Source: a virus
Strand: one strand, 5' to 3'
IMG/VR virus record: IMGVR_UViG_3300021962_011995
Coordinates: 1-23,051 of that record
Length of the DNA stretch: 23,051 nt
In this document: positions 5,881 through 17,084 of the stretch, piece after piece
How the letters are laid out: each line of letters opens with the position of its first letter
Numbering within the stretch: position 1 is the first letter of the stretch
Made by a program: the position numbers and the translations under genes
Notes under the pieces: generated by a model
What the model was told of the DNA's origin: nothing
Database searches by the model: none
What the model saw: only the letters and a program-made list of their open reading frames with translations

Positions 5881-7113
5881 CTATGCGATGAACCTTGCCG
5901 GTTCGCCATGAACTATTGCCTCATCGACAACTATTGAGCTCCCCGCTTTATCGGGGCACTCGAATAAGATGTCGGTCATGAAGCCCTCCATGATGCTGCG
6001 GAGGCTCCTAGCCCCCATCTTAGTCTCTTTGGCCTTCTTGGCAATGAGCCTCAGCGCGCCTTCGGTGAAGTCCAGTATCACGCCATCCATCATGCAAATC
6101 TTCTTGTACTGCTTGACTATTGAGCTTGTTGGCTCCGTCAGAATGGACACGAGGGCGCTCTCGTCCAAGTCTTTGAGGGTGGCGTGCACAGGAAGGCGAC
6201 CTACGAATTCGGGGATGAAGCCAAACTCTATAAGGTCCTCCGATGTGACCATCTCTATGCTGATCTCCGAGGGAGAGGAGTCGTTCCTGAATCCCATGCG
6301 CGAAGCCCCGAGCCTCCTCTGAACAATTTCTTCGAGGCCCACGAACGCTCCTCCGCAGACAAATAGTATGTCGGTGGTGTCGATCTGGATGTATTGCTGC
6401 TCCGGGTGCTTCCTGCCGCCCTGGGGAGGCACATTGCAATTTGTGCCTTCGAGAATCTTCAGCAAAGCCTGCTGAACGCCCTCGCCCGAAACGTCGCGCG
6501 TGAGGCTAACTCCCTGGGTCTTCTTGGCTATCTTGTCTATCTCGTCCACGAAGATGATGCCCGTCTGCGCCTTGGCGACGTTCATGTCGGCGGCCCTGAG
6601 CAGCTTGAGCACGAGGTTCTCCACGTCCTCGCCCACGTAGCCGGCCTCCGTGATAGTGGTCGCATCACCGATTGAGAATGGCACCTGCATGATCTCGGCA
6701 AGGCTCCTGGCGAGGCAGGTCTTGCCGCACCCAGTAGGGCCGATCATCAGTATGTTGGACTTCTCGATCCTAACTTCCCTGTATGGGTCGGCAAGACCTT
6801 TGGATTTGCTGTGCAACCTCTTGTAGTGGCTGCTCACAGCAACGGCAAGTATCCTCTTGGCCCTCTCCTGCCCTATGACCGATCTGTCGAGGTGCTCGAC
6901 GATCATACGGGGGGATACCACCATAGTCGGCAAGAGGACGTGCTCCGACTCCTTGTCCTCCAAGACCATCTGGCACAAGGCCACGCAGCCGGCGCAAATG
7001 TAGCTTCTTGAGGTCGCAGACTTGCCCTTGTGGGCAGGACCTTCTATGAGTGTGCCCACCAAGCTTGCGCCTCTGGAGCAGAAATCACAGACTGGCGTTT
7101 TTTTTCTAGCCAA
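5881..7113 (-). CDS. clpX: ClpX-like AAA+ unfoldase
   Basis: The product has 410 residues and all ClpX landmarks. A zinc-binding domain has Cys9, Cys12, Cys40 and Cys43. Walker A GPTGCGKT lies at 125-132, the pore loop GYVG at 158-161 and Walker B IIFVDEID at 186-193. An RKHPEQQ segment, an MGF tripeptide at the ClpP-contacting IGF loop position, and sensor-2 GARSLRSI complete the set. ClpX unfolds tagged proteins and feeds ClpP. No clpP is seen here, so it may use host ClpP or act alone. I chose TTG 7113, preceded by GAGGTGGATA: the longer reading frame would begin inside the upstream terminator, and this start gives a normal ClpX N-terminus. The insert between the zinc pairs is longer than in E. 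coli. Confidence 0.93.
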
Positions 7114-7168
7114 TATCCACCTCGCAAAAGGCCCTCTGGTAAGCCAGAAGTATAAAAGATAGCGAGGA

Positions 7169-7202
7169 TAAAAAAAAGAAGAGGCGCCACTGGGGCGCCT
7201 CT
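7169..7202 (-). terminator. Rho-independent terminator upstream of clpX
   Basis: Read on the minus strand, a perfect 9-bp stem (AGAGGCGCC at 7202-7194 and its complement at 7188-7180) with a 5-nt loop is followed by TCTTTTTTTAT. It lies 23 nt past the stop of the HTH-like gene and ends that small operon before clpX. Confidence 0.9.
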
Positions 7203-7224
7203 CTCGTTTCAAACTAACTTTGGG

Positions 7225-8215: not shown

Positions 8216-8431
8216 ATGTTGGTTTTGAGCCGAAAAAAAGACCAGACTATCATCTTGAGGCAGCCCGGCATGGAGGATATCACGATTACCGTCGTGAGGA
8301 TCGACAACCGGAACAAGGTCAGGATCGGAATCGAGGCCGACAAAAAAGTTACTGTTCTTCGTTCGGAGCTAACGGGAGAGGCGCTCGACAGCCGTGCTCC
8401 CATCGGCCAAATATCCGCCGAAACTGCTTAG
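8216..8431 (+). CDS. csrA: CsrA/RsmA-family RNA-binding regulator, copy 1
   Basis: The product has 71 residues and starts MLVLSRKK, the canonical CsrA N-terminus. The core VRIGIEAD (35-42) and Arg49, in place of the essential C-terminal Arg44, are present. A short insertion (around PGMED, 17-21) lengthens the first loop. The usual His before the Arg is Leu48, so this copy is more divergent than copy 2 at 12943-13176. CsrA dimers bind GGA motifs near ribosome sites and block or stabilise mRNAs. The gene is alone on the plus strand, with its own GGA-rich leader. Its stop overlaps the convergent minus gene by 4 nt. Confidence 0.9.
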   Translation: MLVLSRKKDQTIILRQPGMEDITITVVRIDNRNKVRIGIEADKKVTVLRSELTGEALDSRAPIGQISAETA

Positions 8432-12310: not shown

Positions 12311-12950
12311 AACAGCGGAAGCATCCGCCGCAACGATTGCAAGTGATATCTGGAGCTTGCGGACTGCCTGGCCGCCTGCCGCACCGGATGCTGTTGTGGG
12401 GAGGTGGGCAGTCACACACATACTTGAGAAGAAACTTCTTGGACGGCATCTGCTGCCTTATTGCCGAGCCGACCTCCGAAGCGCAAGCTTGCCAAGACTG
12501 ACCCATAGGAGAAGTCTGTAACACAAGAGCAAGCCTCTCCCTCGCGCCGTCGCTGGGCCGTATAAACCTCTCCTGCGTTTTTGGTAACTCAAGAGTCGTC
12601 AAGGACCAACCGTGAGTCGGATGCCTCTGGACGAAAAGGCCAGCTGAGCAGGCCTCATTAGCGAAGAACCTGTCATGGTAGTGGCCCGACACAACCCCGT
12701 CGCGCTGGAATCGCAGCAGGTGGACCAACTCATGTAGGTAGTCGACATGGAAGTCGACACAGGAGAGCACTGCAGCAGCCCCGGCGACTATCGAGCCACT
12801 GGCCGCCTGCCACCTGCAAGTGAAACCCTTGGAAGGGTCTAGGTACAGGGAGCTTGGGCGGCCTATGGCGCCTCCAAAAATATTGGAGTTGAAGTGATTG
12901 AACAGCGCCCCCATGCAGTCACGGAAAGCGCCGTGTGAGCGATCAGTCAT
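12300..12950 (-). CDS. SprT-like zinc metalloprotease
   Basis: The product has 216 residues. LFNHFNSNIFGGAI (16-29) resembles the opening of SprT-like domains. HELVH (73-77) is the zinc-binding HExxH, and GHYHDRFF (89-96) supplies the third histidine. A cysteine-rich tail (CDC, CGRR, CNRCGGCFRC) looks like the zinc ribbon often fused to SprT. SPRTN/SprT-type proteases are known to digest proteins crosslinked to DNA. ATG 12950 lies inside the end of csrA copy 2 (ATGACTGA), so the two are translationally coupled. This is the last gene of the methyltransferase operon. Confidence 0.8.
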   Translation of the reverse strand: MTDRSHGAFRDCMGALFNHFNSNIFGGAIGRPSSLYLDPSKGFTCRWQAASGSIVAGAAAVLSCVDFHVDYLHELVHLLRFQRDGVVSGHYHDRFFANEACSAGLFVQRHPTHGWSLTTLELPKTQERFIRPSDGARERLALVLQTSPMGQSWQACASEVGSAIRQQMPSKKFLLKYVCDCPPPHNSIRCGRRPGSPQAPDITCNRCGGCFRCSSS

Positions 12951-13176
12951 AGCGATCGATCACCTTGCTTATTTTTTCGCGATCAAGGGCGTCAGACTTG
13001 GGGTCGTAGTTGCCCACCTTCTTGATTTGGTCGTACACTTCCTGCCGATGGACTGGTACGGAGCGATCGGCCTTGATGCCGATCCTGACCTTCCCGTTCG
13101 TGACCTCAAGCACCACGATCTGAACGTCATCTCCGATCATAATGGATTCGTTGATTTTCCTTTGGACAACCAGCAT
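12943..13176 (-). CDS. csrA: CsrA/RsmA-family RNA-binding regulator, copy 2
   Basis: The product has 77 residues from ATG 13176 (AAGGGAG upstream). It is close to bacterial CsrA: MLVVQRKINESIMIGDDV, then KVRIGIKAD (29-37) and VHRQEVY with Arg44 in the canonical place. The last 25 residues extend beyond the usual 60 or so and are charged. The longer reading frame to 13254 lies inside the methyltransferase ORF and has no ribosome site. CsrA represses or activates mRNAs through GGA motifs. Here it is embedded between DNA-methyltransferase ORFs and a SprT-like protease, with an 8-nt overlap to the latter. It is distinct in sequence from copy 1 at 8216-8431. Confidence 0.93.
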   Translation of the reverse strand: MLVVQRKINESIMIGDDVQIVVLEVTNGKVRIGIKADRSVPVHRQEVYDQIKKVGNYDPKSDALDREKISKVIDRYD

Positions 13177-13193
13177 GAGAACTCCCTTCTCTG

Positions 13194-13847
13194 TTATGCC
13201 GTGCGGGAAGAATCCTCCACGGCTTGAATGCGCATGCCCAGCCAGGCCATGCAATTGACAGCCATCGAATTCCCTAGCGACTGATACCTGGGCTTGTCAG
13301 AGGCGACCTTGCCCCTGAAAGGCACATTCGTGTGTCCGTCTGGGAAACCCTGAAGCCGCTCGCATTCTAACGGAGTCACCCTACGAACTGCCATACAACC
13401 TTCTGCATCTTTGCAAATAATCACCGGCTCATGACCGTGCATCTCGCGACGGAGAGTGCCGGTGGTTCCGTCCATGTTGACATTGATGACGCTGCCACCC
13501 TGATCCATGAGTACCAAGTCGCTGGATTCCACGCGCGCCTCCACCTCGCGAATTCGCTCGCCCAACCAGGCCATTGAGTTTACTGCCATGCTGTTACCTA
13601 GCGCCTTGTAACGAAGCTGGTCGCTTGGCGCGCCTCCCTTGTAGGGGATCATGGTGTAGCCGTCGGGAAAGCCTTGTAGTCTCTCGCACTCCAGGGGCGT
13701 GAACCTGCGAAGGATGTGGCCGTCCCTCACGCCGATCTGGAGGTTGCTGCTGTCGCTTGGCTGCTGGGCAGTAAGCGTCGGCGCAAAGCAACGCTCCCAG
13801 GCGTAGCTATTCGCCTGGGAGCTGCAAGTGAACGCCACGGGCTCCAT
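13194..13847 (-). CDS. C5-methyltransferase third ORF: two motif IX-X modules
   Basis: The product has 217 residues and no catalytic domain. It carries two copies of the C-terminal part of C5-cytosine methyltransferases. The first is at 46-103 (ECERLQGFPDGYT, then ALGNSMAVN). The second is at 154-211 (ECERLQGFPDGHT, then SLGNSMAVN). Each is preceded by a short degenerate repeat with a TL core (APTLTAQ near 22-28; TTGTLRR near 128-134), as in the 798-residue neighbour. Motif X normally completes the SAM-binding fold and motif IX positions the target-recognition domain. This may be an alternative specificity subunit, or a remnant of duplication. It starts 2 nt after the stop of the preceding ORF, in a different frame. 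Confidence 0.8.
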   Translation of the reverse strand: MEPVAFTCSSQANSYAWERCFAPTLTAQQPSDSSNLQIGVRDGHILRRFTPLECERLQGFPDGYTMIPYKGGAPSDQLRYKALGNSMAVNSMAWLGERIREVEARVESSDLVLMDQGGSVINVNMDGTTGTLRREMHGHEPVIICKDAEGCMAVRRVTPLECERLQGFPDGHTNVPFRGKVASDKPRYQSLGNSMAVNCMAWLGMRIQAVEDSSRTA

Positions 13848-13849
13848 GT

Positions 13850-16246
13850 TTAATTGGCCCTTGGCTTCTTCTCTACTTTGGCTACGGGGGTGAGATGGTC
13901 AGCCTCGTTATAGGGCGCCCAGCCGCTTGATCCCTGCATCTTGGCCGTGATGGTCGGGCTGACCTCCCTGCAAGCGACTGGCACTTCAGTAAGGTTGCCT
14001 GAGGCGCCGGGAGAGCTCCCAATCGCGTTTTCCACGCTCTGTATCCGCTCGCCCAGCCACTGCATGCAATTTACCGCCATCGAGTTGCCCAAGGACTTAT
14101 ATCTTGGGCCATCTGCGGCTGGCTTGCCTCTATACTCAACATCGGTGTAATTATCTGGGAATCCCTGAAGCCTCTCGCACTCCATCGGCGTGAGCCTCCT
14201 CACGACCATTCCATAAGAAACTGAATGCGGCTGGGTTGCGTCCATAGTGGGTGCTATCTCCTCGTTGAAGTTAAATCCAGGATCGCGAAGCCTCACTCTG
14301 CCCTCGGCGTCCGGGCTGGGGGTCTTGGCCTTGCCATCCCTGTTCGCGTCGCTTCGCAGCGTGTAAGCCACTGACTCGGCACTTTGCATGGCCACGGCAG
14401 GGGGGTTGCCTCCCCCATGGCCGCCAAGCTTTAAAGTCGGGCTGACGCCTTCTGTGCAGCAGTCGGGGACGCTCATGTTAGAGCTGAACACTATGGGGTG
14501 CTGCTCCTCCACCTTGTACACGACCATCTGGTGGTCGGCTTGGGGCTTGACCGGCCTTGTGACCTTGGTGTCCTCGTCGAATCCGAGAGTGCCTCGACCG
14601 TCCATGCTGTTCTGCTGAAAGCTGCCGATGGGCCCGTCTATCTGGGGGGCGATCACGAAAATCCCAGAGTTCTCGCGCCTCCTGAGCGTGTTGGATACGT
14701 CGTCCTCAATCCACTTTACGAAGCCCGTCTCGCGAACGGTGATTGGGGCGATCTCCATCACCGTCGGGCCAGAGGCATTCGGGCTGGATCCAGTCGCCGT
14801 CATCGTGCAGGCCACATCGCCGGTTATCGCGCCGTTGTAGACGTCGGTTCCCAGCGAAAGCTGTCGCATCACAACCTCCATTACCGTGGGGCCAGAGGAG
14901 CTCGGGTTCGACCCATGCGCAGTCATGGTGCAGGCCACATCGCCGGTTATCGACCCATTGTACATGTCGGTGCCAATCATCATTTTCTGGATGACGGTAG
15001 GCTGGTTGACGGCCGGGTTACCCTGGCCGGCCTTTAGCGTCATGGCCACATCGCCCGTGAGGGAGCAGTTGTAGCAGTCGGCGCCCACGGATATGACCGA
15101 AGCTCCCGCCCCGCAGGGCACTTCGTAGGCCACGGCAACGGTGGCGTAGCCTCCTGTGGTTCCCGTGCCCATCGTGTGGGTTGAGCCATCGGTTGAAGAT
15201 ATAGGGTCTTGGGTGGGGTGGAAGGCAACTACGTTCCTCATCGGTGGTACGGCGACGTAGTTCTGCTGCTTCATCCCAGGCTCTGCCATGAGGGCGCCTG
15301 CTATCTGGCCGTCGCCGTTTACCAGCCTCACCTCGTCGCGAGTGTTTTGCTGGAAGCACACGGGGTACACGACCGCATGGACGTCGTGGCCGTGCATTGC
15401 GGCGAGCGTGTAGGAGGGGCCGTCCTCCTGAGCGACTGCGTTGCTCTTGGAACCCTGCATGTTGATCATGCCGATGGGTCGGTGCGACGGATTTGGGGGC
15501 TGTATTGCTATAGCCACGCCCTGTGTTGCTGCGGCGTCGAGAGTGTAGCTGACGCCGTCCTCGCTGTAGCCCTTGCCGTTCTGCTTCTTGTCGCGACCAG
15601 TCACATCCTGTATTGCGATCGCTACGGCCTGGCTCCTGTCCGACATGGGGTTGGCGGGGAGACAGAAGGCGGTGTCTGGAGAAACGGAAACGCCAGGGGA
15701 GTCACGGTCGCCGTTGAGCTGGAAGGCGATCGCCTCTGTCTGGACGACCATGTGCTTGGGGGGATTGTGCCTCTCATCCCAGGTGTTCATGGTGTAGGCG
15801 ACCTCCGTCTCGGTGAAGGTCGGCGCTTCCTGGTTGTTTCTGGGGGAGACAGACTTGACGAACACAACGGGTATCACGTGGCCCGCATCAACTGCTTGGT
15901 TGCAGGCGAAGTTGCCCGCATCGTTTCCGTTCGGGCCTGTGTTGCATGCCAGTGGGCCTACGACGTCCGAAACAGGGCAACTGACGACGGCCATCTGGTT
16001 GTCGCCCGGGCAGGCCCTGAGGGTGCCGCTGACTTCCTCCCAGTAATGACCGCCCTTCCTGCGCATGATGCCAGGCTCAAAGGCATAGGACACGCAGGGA
16101 ACTAGGGAGCCGCCCCTCTGCCCGAAGACCTCCTGGTTGCTCATGCCTATGCCGCCGCTGCCCCTGGCGCACCCACATAGGGTCGGATGGGCAAACTCCT
16201 CACCGTCCCAATGGCTCTTGTTCTGGCGGCTGTTGGGTTCGGTCAT
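13850..16246 (-). CDS. Giant repeat-type target-recognition subunit of a split C5-methyltransferase
   Basis: The product has 798 residues. Residues 1 to about 680 are built from roughly fifteen degenerate repeats of 30-45 residues. Each has an acidic (E/D)xVSxT(L/M) core, a small-residue turn and a hydrophobic VV or VA end (for example EVSGTLRA, GVSYTLDA, DVACTMTA, DVSNTLRR, GVSPTLKL). Residues 682-742 (nt 14021-14203) are motifs IX-X (ECERLQGFPD, SLGNSMAVN). A 56-residue tail with another repeat (EVSPTITA) follows. The catalytic motifs are in the upstream ORF, whose stop is 1 nt before this ATG. Two-subunit C5-methyltransferases such as M.AquI are known; a recognition part this long and repetitive is unusual. 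Confidence 0.85.
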   Translation of the reverse strand: MTEPNSRQNKSHWDGEEFAHPTLCGCARGSGGIGMSNQEVFGQRGGSLVPCVSYAFEPGIMRRKGGHYWEEVSGTLRACPGDNQMAVVSCPVSDVVGPLACNTGPNGNDAGNFACNQAVDAGHVIPVVFVKSVSPRNNQEAPTFTETEVAYTMNTWDERHNPPKHMVVQTEAIAFQLNGDRDSPGVSVSPDTAFCLPANPMSDRSQAVAIAIQDVTGRDKKQNGKGYSEDGVSYTLDAAATQGVAIAIQPPNPSHRPIGMINMQGSKSNAVAQEDGPSYTLAAMHGHDVHAVVYPVCFQQNTRDEVRLVNGDGQIAGALMAEPGMKQQNYVAVPPMRNVVAFHPTQDPISSTDGSTHTMGTGTTGGYATVAVAYEVPCGAGASVISVGADCYNCSLTGDVAMTLKAGQGNPAVNQPTVIQKMMIGTDMYNGSITGDVACTMTAHGSNPSSSGPTVMEVVMRQLSLGTDVYNGAITGDVACTMTATGSSPNASGPTVMEIAPITVRETGFVKWIEDDVSNTLRRRENSGIFVIAPQIDGPIGSFQQNSMDGRGTLGFDEDTKVTRPVKPQADHQMVVYKVEEQHPIVFSSNMSVPDCCTEGVSPTLKLGGHGGGNPPAVAMQSAESVAYTLRSDANRDGKAKTPSPDAEGRVRLRDPGFNFNEEIAPTMDATQPHSVSYGMVVRRLTPMECERLQGFPDNYTDVEYRGKPAADGPRYKSLGNSMAVNCMQWLGERIQSVENAIGSSPGASGNLTEVPVACREVSPTITAKMQGSSGWAPYNEADHLTPVAKVEKKPRAN
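14770..15090 (-). repeat. Three near-identical tandem repeat units in the recognition ORF
   Basis: Three successive units encode GxDxYNxxxTGDVAxT(L/M) followed by a turn and PTV. The marker GCCACATCGC (plus strand) falls at 14811-14820, 14934-14943 and 15045-15054, a spacing of 123 and 111 nt (41 and 37 codons). The first two share a long exact stretch around it, so they look like recent duplications within the longer, older repeat array. Confidence 0.8.
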
Positions 16247-16247
16247 T

Positions 16248-17084
16248 TCATTTTCGCTGGTACATGGTCAGGGGGACGTTGCCGCCCCCTGTCCCCATTC
16301 TGGCCTTGAGGGTTGGCGTGATCTCCTCGGGCTCCCTATCCTCTTTCCCGTTGCCCGAGACTGCGTGGGCGAACATCAGTCCTCCGCCGGGGTCTGGCTC
16401 TGCTGATCCGACTCCTCCGCAGTCTCCCCCTGGCCCGCCTCCAGATTGCCTGCCACAGCCGACAGCGCCTGTTGCAGCATTGGGGGCAAGGTTTTTTGTC
16501 GAGCAGCGGCGCGCCGTAGGATCCCTGCGCAAGCTCTCGCCGTTAAATAGTACCTCTGCGGCACGGTTGTCACTTCCAAGATATCCGACAACGAACACAC
16601 GACGTCTTCGTTGGGGGACGGCACCGGGAAACTGTTGTGTTCGGACCCACTGAGCGTCCAGCACCCTGTATCCGTACTGATACCCCAGGTTTGCCAGCGA
16701 CCCGAGGAGGGTGCCAAAATCCCTTCCTCCGTTGCTTGTGAGAACTCCGGGGACGTTTTCCCAAAGCACCCATCGAGGTTTGTAACGTTGAGCGATGTTA
16801 ACAAAGTCAAGCATAAGTCCTCCTCGGGCGTCCTCGAGCCCCTTCCGGAGCCCGGCGACCGAGAAGCTTTGGCAGGGCGTCCCGCCGACGAGGAGGTCGA
16901 TTTCTGCATCTGGCCATTCTCTCCACTTGGTCATGTCCCCCCAGTTGGGGACGTTTGGATAGTGATGTTGGAGGACTGCACAGGGGAACGGCTCGATTTC
17001 CGAGAAAGCCACGGGAGTCCAGCCTAGGCTGTGCCAAGCCACTGTGGCGCATTCAATACCTGAGCAAACACTGAGGTAACGCAT
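16248..17084 (-). CDS. C5-cytosine DNA methyltransferase catalytic subunit (motifs I-VIII)
   Basis: The product has 278 residues from ATG 17084 (AGAAGG upstream). Motif I is SVCSGIECATVAW (5-17), a known variant of FxGxG. Motif IV is GGTPCQSFS (67-75) with the catalytic Cys71. Motif VI is ENVPG (109-113). Motif VIII is QRRRRVFVVG (158-167). After residue 180 the sequence becomes Gly/Arg-rich, and it ends with one repeat unit (EEITPTLKARMG), so the recognition array begins here. Motifs IX-X are absent and are supplied by the next two ORFs. The enzyme would transfer methyl from SAM to cytosine C5. The specificity is unknown. Confidence 0.92.
   Translation of the reverse strand: MRYLSVCSGIECATVAWHSLGWTPVAFSEIEPFPCAVLQHHYPNVPNWGDMTKWREWPDAEIDLLVGGTPCQSFSVAGLRKGLEDARGGLMLDFVNIAQRYKPRWVLWENVPGVLTSNGGRDFGTLLGSLANLGYQYGYRVLDAQWVRTQQFPGAVPQRRRRVFVVGYLGSDNRAAEVLFNGESLRRDPTARRCSTKNLAPNAATGAVGCGRQSGGGPGGDCGGVGSAEPDPGGGLMFAHAVSGNGKEDREPEEITPTLKARMGTGGGNVPLTMYQRK

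What the first reader, a model, noticed from the sequence alone, without database searches (positions are those of the whole stretch)
13194..17084. C5-methyltransferase split over three ORFs with a giant repetitive recognition subunit
Motifs I-VIII sit in a 278-residue ORF. The next ORF (798 residues) is almost entirely about fifteen degenerate repeats ending in motifs IX-X. A third ORF adds two more motif IX-X modules. The ORFs are 1-2 nt apart and in different frames. Two-subunit C5-methyltransferases are known (for example M.AquI). One catalytic part with three IX-X modules and so large a repeat array suggests interchangeable or multi-site recognition, or a recognition scaffold that evolves by repeat gain and loss.
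Basis: partly seen in the sequence, partly recalled or inferred. Interest (0 to 1): 0.8.

Follow-up and report, generated by a model that had tools for sequence, protein, structure and literature searches.

The report
Split methyltransferase with nineteen recognition modules
A virus of bacteria carries a DNA-marking enzyme made as three proteins with about nineteen small modules that look like DNA-reading parts, most of which also occur in shuffled order in other viruses' enzymes, probably so that one enzyme can shield viral DNA from many host restriction systems.

Summary
Three adjacent minus-strand ORFs (278, 798, 217 aa) encode one C5-cytosine methyltransferase: ORF1 has the catalytic block, ORF2 a ~670-residue array plus motifs IX-X, ORF3 two more IX-X modules. 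The same split in a diverged relative, with a different stop codon and dN/dS near 0.1, argues against assembly error and decay. The "repeats" look like target-recognition domains (TRDs) of the TL type: a profile trained on other viruses finds 1+16+2 cores (shuffles 0.86), and 2 in M.SPbetaI and 3 in M.SPRI, known multispecific phage enzymes. 18 of 20 hand-cut modules recur outside the lineage; in single-ORF enzymes every hit lies between catalytic block and IX-X. Their order is as often reversed as kept, and their similarity does not follow that of the catalytic block. Best reading: a hyper-multispecific C5-methyltransferase on two or three subunits, assembled from a circulating pool of TRD cassettes, protecting phage DNA from many restriction enzymes. 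Weak points: AlphaFold2 did not fold the modules (nor the proven TRDs of M.SPRI), two modules have no relatives, and no activity or specificity was measured. A new variant of a known kind: Bacillus-phage multispecific enzymes crossed with an M.AquI-like split, with more cores than any other enzyme held here.

The parts
16248..17084 (-). ORF1, catalytic subunit of a C5-cytosine methyltransferase, 278 aa
   Evidence: Pfam DNA_methylase 1-166/324, E 4.6e-39; matches M.HhaI in the PDB, 2.2e-17; AGAAGG before the ATG; dN/dS 0.109 against L003
16251..16379 (-). module M00 (TL-type TRD) at the C-terminus of ORF1
   Evidence: strict core; relatives in 4 loci at E<=1e-3, best hit 43%
16246..16250 (-). 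junction ORF1/ORF2: TGA, 1 nt, ATG (in relative L003: TAA, 1 nt, ATG)
13850..16246 (-). ORF2, specificity subunit: TRD-like array, IX-X, one trailing module, 798 aa
   Evidence: dN/dS 0.077
14213..16216 (-). array of modules M01-M16 (hand-cut)
   Evidence: 15 strict cores; M09 and M14 have none, M16 has two; relatives of M01-M12, M15 and M16 elsewhere
14033..14203 (-). motif IX-X module 1 (ORF2)
   Evidence: Pfam 270-323/324 at residues 677-736; HMM
13877..13993 (-). module M17, after the IX-X of ORF2
   Evidence: strict core; relatives in 2 loci, L103 and L220
13194..13847 (-). ORF3, second specificity subunit: two [TRD + IX-X] cassettes, 217 aa
   Evidence: dN/dS 0.083
13728..13841 (-). module M18
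   Evidence: relatives in 6 loci, best hit 73%; directly before IX-X in L324, L325 and L329
13542..13709 (-). motif IX-X module 2
13407..13526 (-). module M19
   Evidence: relatives in 32 loci, best hit 82%; directly before IX-X in 5 distinct enzymes
13218..13388 (-). motif IX-X module 3

Best explanation
A phage C5-cytosine methyltransferase in pieces. ORF1 binds AdoMet and does the chemistry (shown by homology). ORF2 supplies motifs IX-X and about sixteen TRDs in tandem; ORF3 supplies two more [TRD + IX-X] cassettes; one TRD sits at the end of ORF1. The split is a real, conserved gene arrangement (shown) that is probably translated by coupling (inferred). ORF2, and possibly each half of ORF3, docks on ORF1 to complete the enzyme (inferred from M.AquI and fragment complementation). 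One TRD at a time enters the DNA cleft while the others loop out (inferred), so one catalytic centre methylates as many different sites as there are working TRDs, as in the multispecific enzymes of Bacillus phages. The virus thereby protects its DNA against many host restriction enzymes (inferred). The array is built by recombination from a pool of TRD cassettes shared among viruses (pattern shown, mechanism inferred).
For: Split kept in L003 with TAA in place of TGA; dN/dS 0.109/0.077/0.083; each of ten 80-codon slices of ORF2 <=0.22. Cores 1+16+2 against 0.225+0.5+0.135 in shuffles; the same profile, trained without the window's kin and without the loci found with M.SPbetaI, finds 2 in M.SPbetaI and 3 in M.SPRI, which a reference title calls triple-specific. 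The TL motif is a published hallmark of C5 TRDs (PMC2413257 passages). 361 of 361 module hits in single-ORF enzymes lie between catalytic block and IX-X. 18 of 20 modules recur at E<=1e-3, 0 of 200 shuffled queries do. Order: 38 pair occurrences as in the window, 48 reversed, 8 of 37 pairs in both orders. Module identity does not follow catalytic identity (Spearman -0.07, 0.08, 0.00). M06 resembles the last TRD of M.SPRI and M.SPbetaI. PF00145 finds one catalytic domain and three C-terminal matches in the 120.5-kb relative. Tight stop/start junctions in other viruses: 4 of 13 examined, L106 and L107 (same sequence), L164 and L224.
Against: AF2 did not fold the modules (control equally poor). 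M13 and M14 have no relative outside the lineage at E<=1e-3. M14 has no core in the strict or looser profile and M09 only in the looser one. M03, M05 and M08 lack the T of the TL pair (sequence). The calibration of cores against specificities rests on two related enzymes; L298 and L300, of unknown specificity, show 4 each. The M06 match to M.SPRI and M.SPbetaI is from a two-sequence search (9.3e-6, 3.6e-5) and would not stand out in a large database. M17 follows IX-X, a place not seen in single-ORF relatives. No direct evidence for complex formation, methylation or any recognition site. L002 and L003 print the same proteins and count once.
Confidence: 0.74

Rival explanations
1. Only one or a few modules recognise DNA; the rest are inert spacers or a generic DNA-holding scaffold left by past recombination.
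For: AF2 gives no fold for modules of a relative; three modules lack the T of TL; M13 and M14 have no relatives outside the lineage; M14 has no core.
Against: Purifying selection along the array: each of ten 80-codon slices has dN/dS <=0.22. For 16 of the 18 recurring modules the best hit outside the lineage is 58-91% identical (M00 43%, M10 41%). In M.SPRI and M.SPbetaI the core count equals the number of specificities: 3 from a reference title, 2 from recall.
Confidence: 0.2
2. ORF3 is a passenger: [TRD + IX-X] remnants of recombination at the conserved IX-X segment, not a working subunit.
For: Extra IX-X units look rare: going by eye through the listings, only L164 has complete extra [TRD + IX-X] ORFs, and no other ORF has two complete IX-X domains. 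Flanks of 2.5-5 kb limit this.
Against: ORF3 dN/dS 0.083, open and identically placed in L003; both cassettes carry modules found directly before IX-X elsewhere; L164 is a parallel, its first extra ORF joined by an ATGA overlap.
Confidence: 0.3
3. Programmed frameshifting at the junctions makes one long polypeptide; the split is only apparent.
For: Gaps of 1 and 2 nt; the open frames of ORF2 and ORF3 reach 7 and 17 codons upstream of their ATGs.
Against: Each downstream ORF has an ATG at the junction; no slippery heptamer seen by eye; the first junction differs in L003 while stop and start are kept. Similar TGA-N-ATG or ATGA junctions in L106/L107, L164 and L224 fit translational coupling.
Confidence: 0.08
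4. Assembly or sequencing errors, or a decaying pseudogene of an ordinary methyltransferase.
For: Most sampled relatives are unsplit: 204 distinct single-ORF enzymes.
Against: Same breaks in a separate, diverged contig with a different stop codon; dN/dS near 0.1 in all three ORFs.
Confidence: 0.02

Closest known systems
Multispecific C5-methyltransferases of Bacillus phages (M.SPRI, M.SPbetaI/phi3T)
   Same: Several TL-type TRDs in tandem between catalytic block and IX-X of a phage C5-methyltransferase; M06 resembles their shared last TRD.
   Different: 2-3 TRD cores in one chain there; 19 cores on three chains and three IX-X modules here.
M.AquI (two-subunit C5-methyltransferase)
   Different: M.AquI is described with one site (CYCGRG) and two polypeptides; here an array, a third ORF and three IX-X modules.
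Other phage DNA methyltransferases, PHROG family phrog_116
   Same: Same catalytic block (phrog_116 E 6.3e-65; best phage record Pseudanabaena phage Pan4, 73% over 71% of ORF1) and, in the viral relatives, the same style of modules.
   Different: Sampled viral relatives are mostly single ORFs with one IX-X, median 5 cores and maximum 14 in 193 regions.
Type I HsdM/HsdS
   Same: Works-like only: catalytic subunit followed by a coupled specificity subunit (EcoKI, start of the abstract of PMC3510504); TRD movement as in H. pylori S genes (PMC3077401 abstract).
   Different: No Type I family came up in the Pfam or PHROG scans; C5 chemistry.

Membership tests
C5-cytosine DNA methyltransferase | Catalytic motifs (PC, ENV, QRR) and motifs IX-X | tested here: met
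   PF00145 in all three ORFs; P70 C71, E109 N110 V111, Q158-R162 among the nearly invariant columns of an alignment that includes the window
C5-cytosine DNA methyltransferase | Catalytic activity, 5mC in DNA | not testable with these tools
   no methylation data
Multispecific (Bacillus-phage type) C5-methyltransferase | Several TRDs with a TL-type core in tandem between motif VIII and IX | tested here: met
   16 cores up to the IX-X of ORF2 (1 in ORF1, 15 in ORF2), 19 in all; TL hallmark from PMC2413257 passages
Multispecific (Bacillus-phage type) C5-methyltransferase | Sequence homology of modules to proven TRDs | tested here: inconclusive
   M06 family HMM hits M.SPRI 349-368 (9.3e-6) and M.SPbetaI 353-372 (3.6e-5), M07 hits M.SPRI (0.0012), all in a two-sequence search; the other modules at best 0.012
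Multispecific (Bacillus-phage type) C5-methyltransferase | Each TRD gives an independent recognition sequence | not testable with these tools
   needs expression and methylome
Multispecific (Bacillus-phage type) C5-methyltransferase | Single polypeptide with one IX-X | tested here: not met
   three ORFs, three IX-X modules; hence filed as a variant
M.AquI-type two-subunit C5-methyltransferase | Split in the variable region between VIII and IX, adjacent genes | tested here: met
   M.AquI described (adjacency of its genes recalled)
M.AquI-type two-subunit C5-methyltransferase | Subunits associate into an active enzyme | not testable with these tools
Folded TRD domain | Confident fold, docking in the cleft | tested here: inconclusive
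   modules of relative L194 pLDDT <50; control L295, 437/439 identical to M.SPRI, TRD segment also <50

The most novel reading that the evidence does not exclude
Viruses of bacteria share a pool of exchangeable ~40-residue TRD cassettes, and this virus has taken it to an extreme: one C5 catalytic subunit with about nineteen working TRDs, eighteen of them on two specificity subunits, and three alternative IX-X halves - a modular M/S-style 'skeleton key' that masks a dozen or more restriction sites at once.
Probability: 0.38. Interest if true: 0.82.

Novelty: new variant of a known kind. Interest (0 to 1): 0.64.

Why it matters
Arrays of two or three TRDs have long been known from Bacillus phages. 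Here the same principle appears in about two hundred distinct module-bearing frames from viral contigs and bacterial genomes (210), with freely shuffled modules and up to 19 cores in one gene cluster. If each module is one specificity, genomes could be read for which restriction systems a phage evades, motifs could be assigned module by module, and the array would be a source of swappable recognition parts for one catalytic subunit.

Tried and rejected
Assembly error and pseudogene: rejected by the conserved split with a different stop codon and by dN/dS. Repeat gain or loss between window and nearest kin: looked for, not found (one 1-aa indel). In-place divergence of one repeat: rejected except for M10-M12 (HMMs grown from each retrieve 147 domains in 107 loci). 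An alignment with isolated fragments misplaced the IX pieces and several modules and was dropped. L117, with the longest VIII-IX region (767 aa), was left out of the core counts by a length filter (203 of 204 regions kept); it has 8 cores. Rfam (gathering threshold) and tRNA searches of the window: no hits. hhalign scores of M06 against the SPbeta TRD family are inflated because the alignments share members; I rely. Paper searches: among the titles and abstract starts listed, nothing describes such arrays beyond the Bacillus phages; several lists were capped (25 of 182, 15 of 373, 15 of 234, 8 of 8, 15 of 38, 30 of 35, 22 of 22), the library holds openly licensed papers only, two key EMBO papers are not held, and REBASE was not at hand. 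Passages of PMC4190342 and PMC4081073 were seen and not used.

Full report
1. What is there. The window is a 23,051-base virus record. On the minus strand three ORFs follow each other: ORF1 17084-16248 (278 aa; AGAAGG just upstream of its ATG), ORF2 16246-13850 (798 aa) and ORF3 13847-13194 (217 aa). The junctions read TGA-A-ATG and TAA-AC-ATG. Pfam DNA_methylase is divided among them: positions 1-166 of 324 in ORF1, 270-323 in ORF2 at residues 677-736, and two C-terminal stretches in ORF3. So there is one catalytic block and three IX-X modules.

2. The split is real. Contigs 3300020172_005639 (L003/L006) and 3300020205_005590 (L002/L007) carry the same three ORFs with the same gaps, 278/799/217 aa. 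Their printed proteins are the same, so they count as one comparison. Against L003, protein identity is 266/278, 722/799 and 206/217; dN/dS is 0.109, 0.077 and 0.083; each of ten 80-codon slices of ORF2 lies at or below 0.22; the only indel is one residue in ORF2. ORF1 ends in TGA in the window and in TAA in L003, yet stop, one base and ATG are kept. This argues against assembly error and against decay. No module was gained or lost at this distance.

3. What the repeats are. I trained a 22-residue profile on the stretch between catalytic block and IX-X of other viruses' enzymes. Of 204 distinct single-ORF enzymes a length filter kept 203; the strict version used 193, without the loci found with M.SPbetaI; the window's kin were never in. 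It finds 1 core in ORF1, 16 in ORF2 and 2 in ORF3; shuffled frames give 0.225, 0.5 and 0.135. The looser version finds 17 in ORF2, 2 in ORF3 and 2 in ORF1, one of the latter inside the catalytic block. In the 193 regions the strict median is 5 and the maximum 14 (1,023 cores by adding up the printed distribution, 33 in shuffles); outside these regions it finds 18 in 54,418 residues. Over 455 frames with catalytic block or IX-X in all held loci outside the lineage (overlaps not removed) the maximum is again 14. Against my hand-cut modules, M09 and M14 have no strict core and M16 has two; M14 has none in the looser profile either. A published hallmark of C5 TRDs is the TL motif, 10-50 residues from motif IX (PMC2413257 passages). 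The same strict profile finds 2 cores in M.SPbetaI and 3 in M.SPRI; the related L298 and L300, of unknown specificity, have 4 each. M.SPRI is triple-specific according to a reference title seen; two specificities for phi3T, whose enzyme matches M.SPbetaI at 99.8%, is recalled. A review says that Bacillus temperate phages array multiple TRDs in one polypeptide (PMC12707154 passage).

4. The modules circulate. I cut 20 modules by hand: M00 in ORF1, M01-M17 in ORF2 (M17 lies after IX-X), M18 and M19 in ORF3. Scans of viral contigs with ORF1, ORF2, ORF3, M08, M12-type, M19 and M.SPbetaI, three of them capped at the best 80, and of bacterial genomes with M08 gave the comparison set. At E<=1e-3, 18 of 20 modules have relatives outside the lineage (all but M13 and M14), against 0 of 200 shuffled queries. 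For 16 of these 18 the best hit is 58-91% identical; M00 and M10 are at 43% and 41%. M03, M05 and M16 rest on one locus each. Of 307 frames with such a hit (overlapping loci counted), 303 also hold the catalytic block or IX-X. In enzymes with both in one ORF, 361 of 361 hits (E<=1e-2, overlaps not removed, tolerance 30 and 10 residues) lie between the two. Of 210 distinct module-bearing frames, 48 have two or more kinds; their pairs occur 38 times in window order and 48 times reversed, and 8 of 37 pairs are seen in both orders (11 of 38 at E<=1e-2). For M08, M12 and M19 (59, 37 and 26 enzymes) identity of the module to the window does not follow identity of the catalytic block (Spearman -0.07, 0.08, 0.00). 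The set was chosen partly by module matches, so frequencies are biased and the range of module identities is cut at the low end. Between window and L003, four-fold sites differ at 0.405 from ORF2 codon 21 to ORF3 codon 93 against 0.161 outside (0 of 2000 permutations reach this), which would fit an array exchanged separately from ORF1; other causes are not excluded. M08 matches 60 loci of bacterial genomes from many phyla.

5. A link to a proven TRD. An HMM grown from M06 without the loci hits M.SPRI 349-368 (9.3e-6) and M.SPbetaI 353-372 (3.6e-5), the last TRD shared by the two. These E-values are for a two-sequence search and would not be significant in a large database. M07 hits M.SPRI at 0.0012; the other modules reach 0.012 at best. 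MtbP of SPbeta is reported to methylate GGCC (PMC8270828 passage), so M06 may read GGCC; this is inference.

6. Structure. AF2 on L194, a single-ORF relative with M12 directly before IX-X, gave high confidence for the catalytic part and IX-X but below 50 for residues 196-302, the modules. Its best PDB matches are M.HhaI structures, with M.HaeIII at rank 10. As a control, L295, 437/439 identical to M.SPRI, behaved the same way: residues 254-369, where its TRD cores lie, stayed below 50. With such shallow alignments low confidence says nothing for or against. Docking of the three IX-X modules was not tested.

7. How it most likely works. Shown by homology: one catalytic subunit. Shown by comparison: conserved split, TRD-like array, modules shared and shuffled between enzymes. 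[quoted passage not shown] Also inferred: TRDs take turns in the cleft, and ORF3 offers two further C-terminal halves. In the 120.5-kb relative PF00145 finds only this one catalytic domain and the three C-terminal matches, so ORF3 has no other visible partner in that record, which may be incomplete. Of 13 junctions examined in other split loci, 4 have an ATG within 4 nt of the stop: L106 and L107 (the same sequence, TGA-T-ATG, in mid-array), L224 (ATGA) and the first of two in L164 (ATGA, between a complete enzyme and a stand-alone [TRD + IX-X] ORF); the other 9 are looser and some may be frame errors. No other ORF in the set holds two complete IX-X domains. Coupled translation of M and S is described for EcoKI (start of the abstract of PMC3510504). 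The biological aim, protection from restriction, follows from the Bacillus precedents and is not shown here.

8. What speaks against. No activity, specificity or complex was measured; M03, M05 and M08 lack the T of the TL pair; M13 and M14 are unique to the lineage; the calibration of cores against specificities rests on two related enzymes; ORF3 could be a conserved passenger.

9. Novelty. Multispecific and split C5-methyltransferases are both known. Their combination, the size of the array (19 cores against at most 14 in any other held frame), the three IX-X modules and the evidence for a shared, shuffled pool of cassettes are what looks new. The titles and abstract starts listed by the paper searches describe nothing like it, within an open-licence library and partly capped lists.

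Noticed in passing
window 8216-8431 (+) and 12943-13254 (-): Two CsrA-like proteins (Pfam CsrA, E 4.8e-16 and 1.7e-22) in one viral fragment. The second lies directly downstream of ORF3; its frame overlaps ORF3 only by the mechanical TTG start, the CsrA match begins at residue 27.
   Followed up: no
window 5881-7212 (-): ClpX-like AAA+ protein with a ClpX zinc finger encoded by the virus.
   Followed up: no
window 13194-16246 against L003: Four-fold sites differ about 2.5 times more often in the array segment than in ORF1 and three neighbouring genes, possibly a sign of separate exchange.
   Followed up: partly
L164 1165-5393: Two complete multi-TRD methyltransferases in a row followed by two small [TRD + IX-X] ORFs, the first of them through an ATGA overlap.
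   Followed up: partly
L374, L378, L381, L384, L393 (Zavarzinella formosa): One planctomycete genome carries the M08 module at five separate loci.
   Followed up: no
L227 2801-6544: A 1248-aa frame with catalytic block, M01 and M12 runs past its IX-X module, which lies in another frame; possible frameshift.
   Followed up: no
L117 2102-5092: The 767-aa VIII-IX region has only 8 strict cores and long stretches that do not look like modules, perhaps an insertion in the TRD region.
   Followed up: no
PHROG family phrog_864: A family named DNA primase matches the catalytic part of ORF1 and the IX-X of ORF2 and ORF3; its name may hide a methyltransferase fusion.
   Followed up: no
L411, L416, L422, L293: Four frames with a module match (M08 or M19) hold neither catalytic block nor IX-X in the same frame; broken genes, other frames or stand-alone modules.
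   Followed up: no
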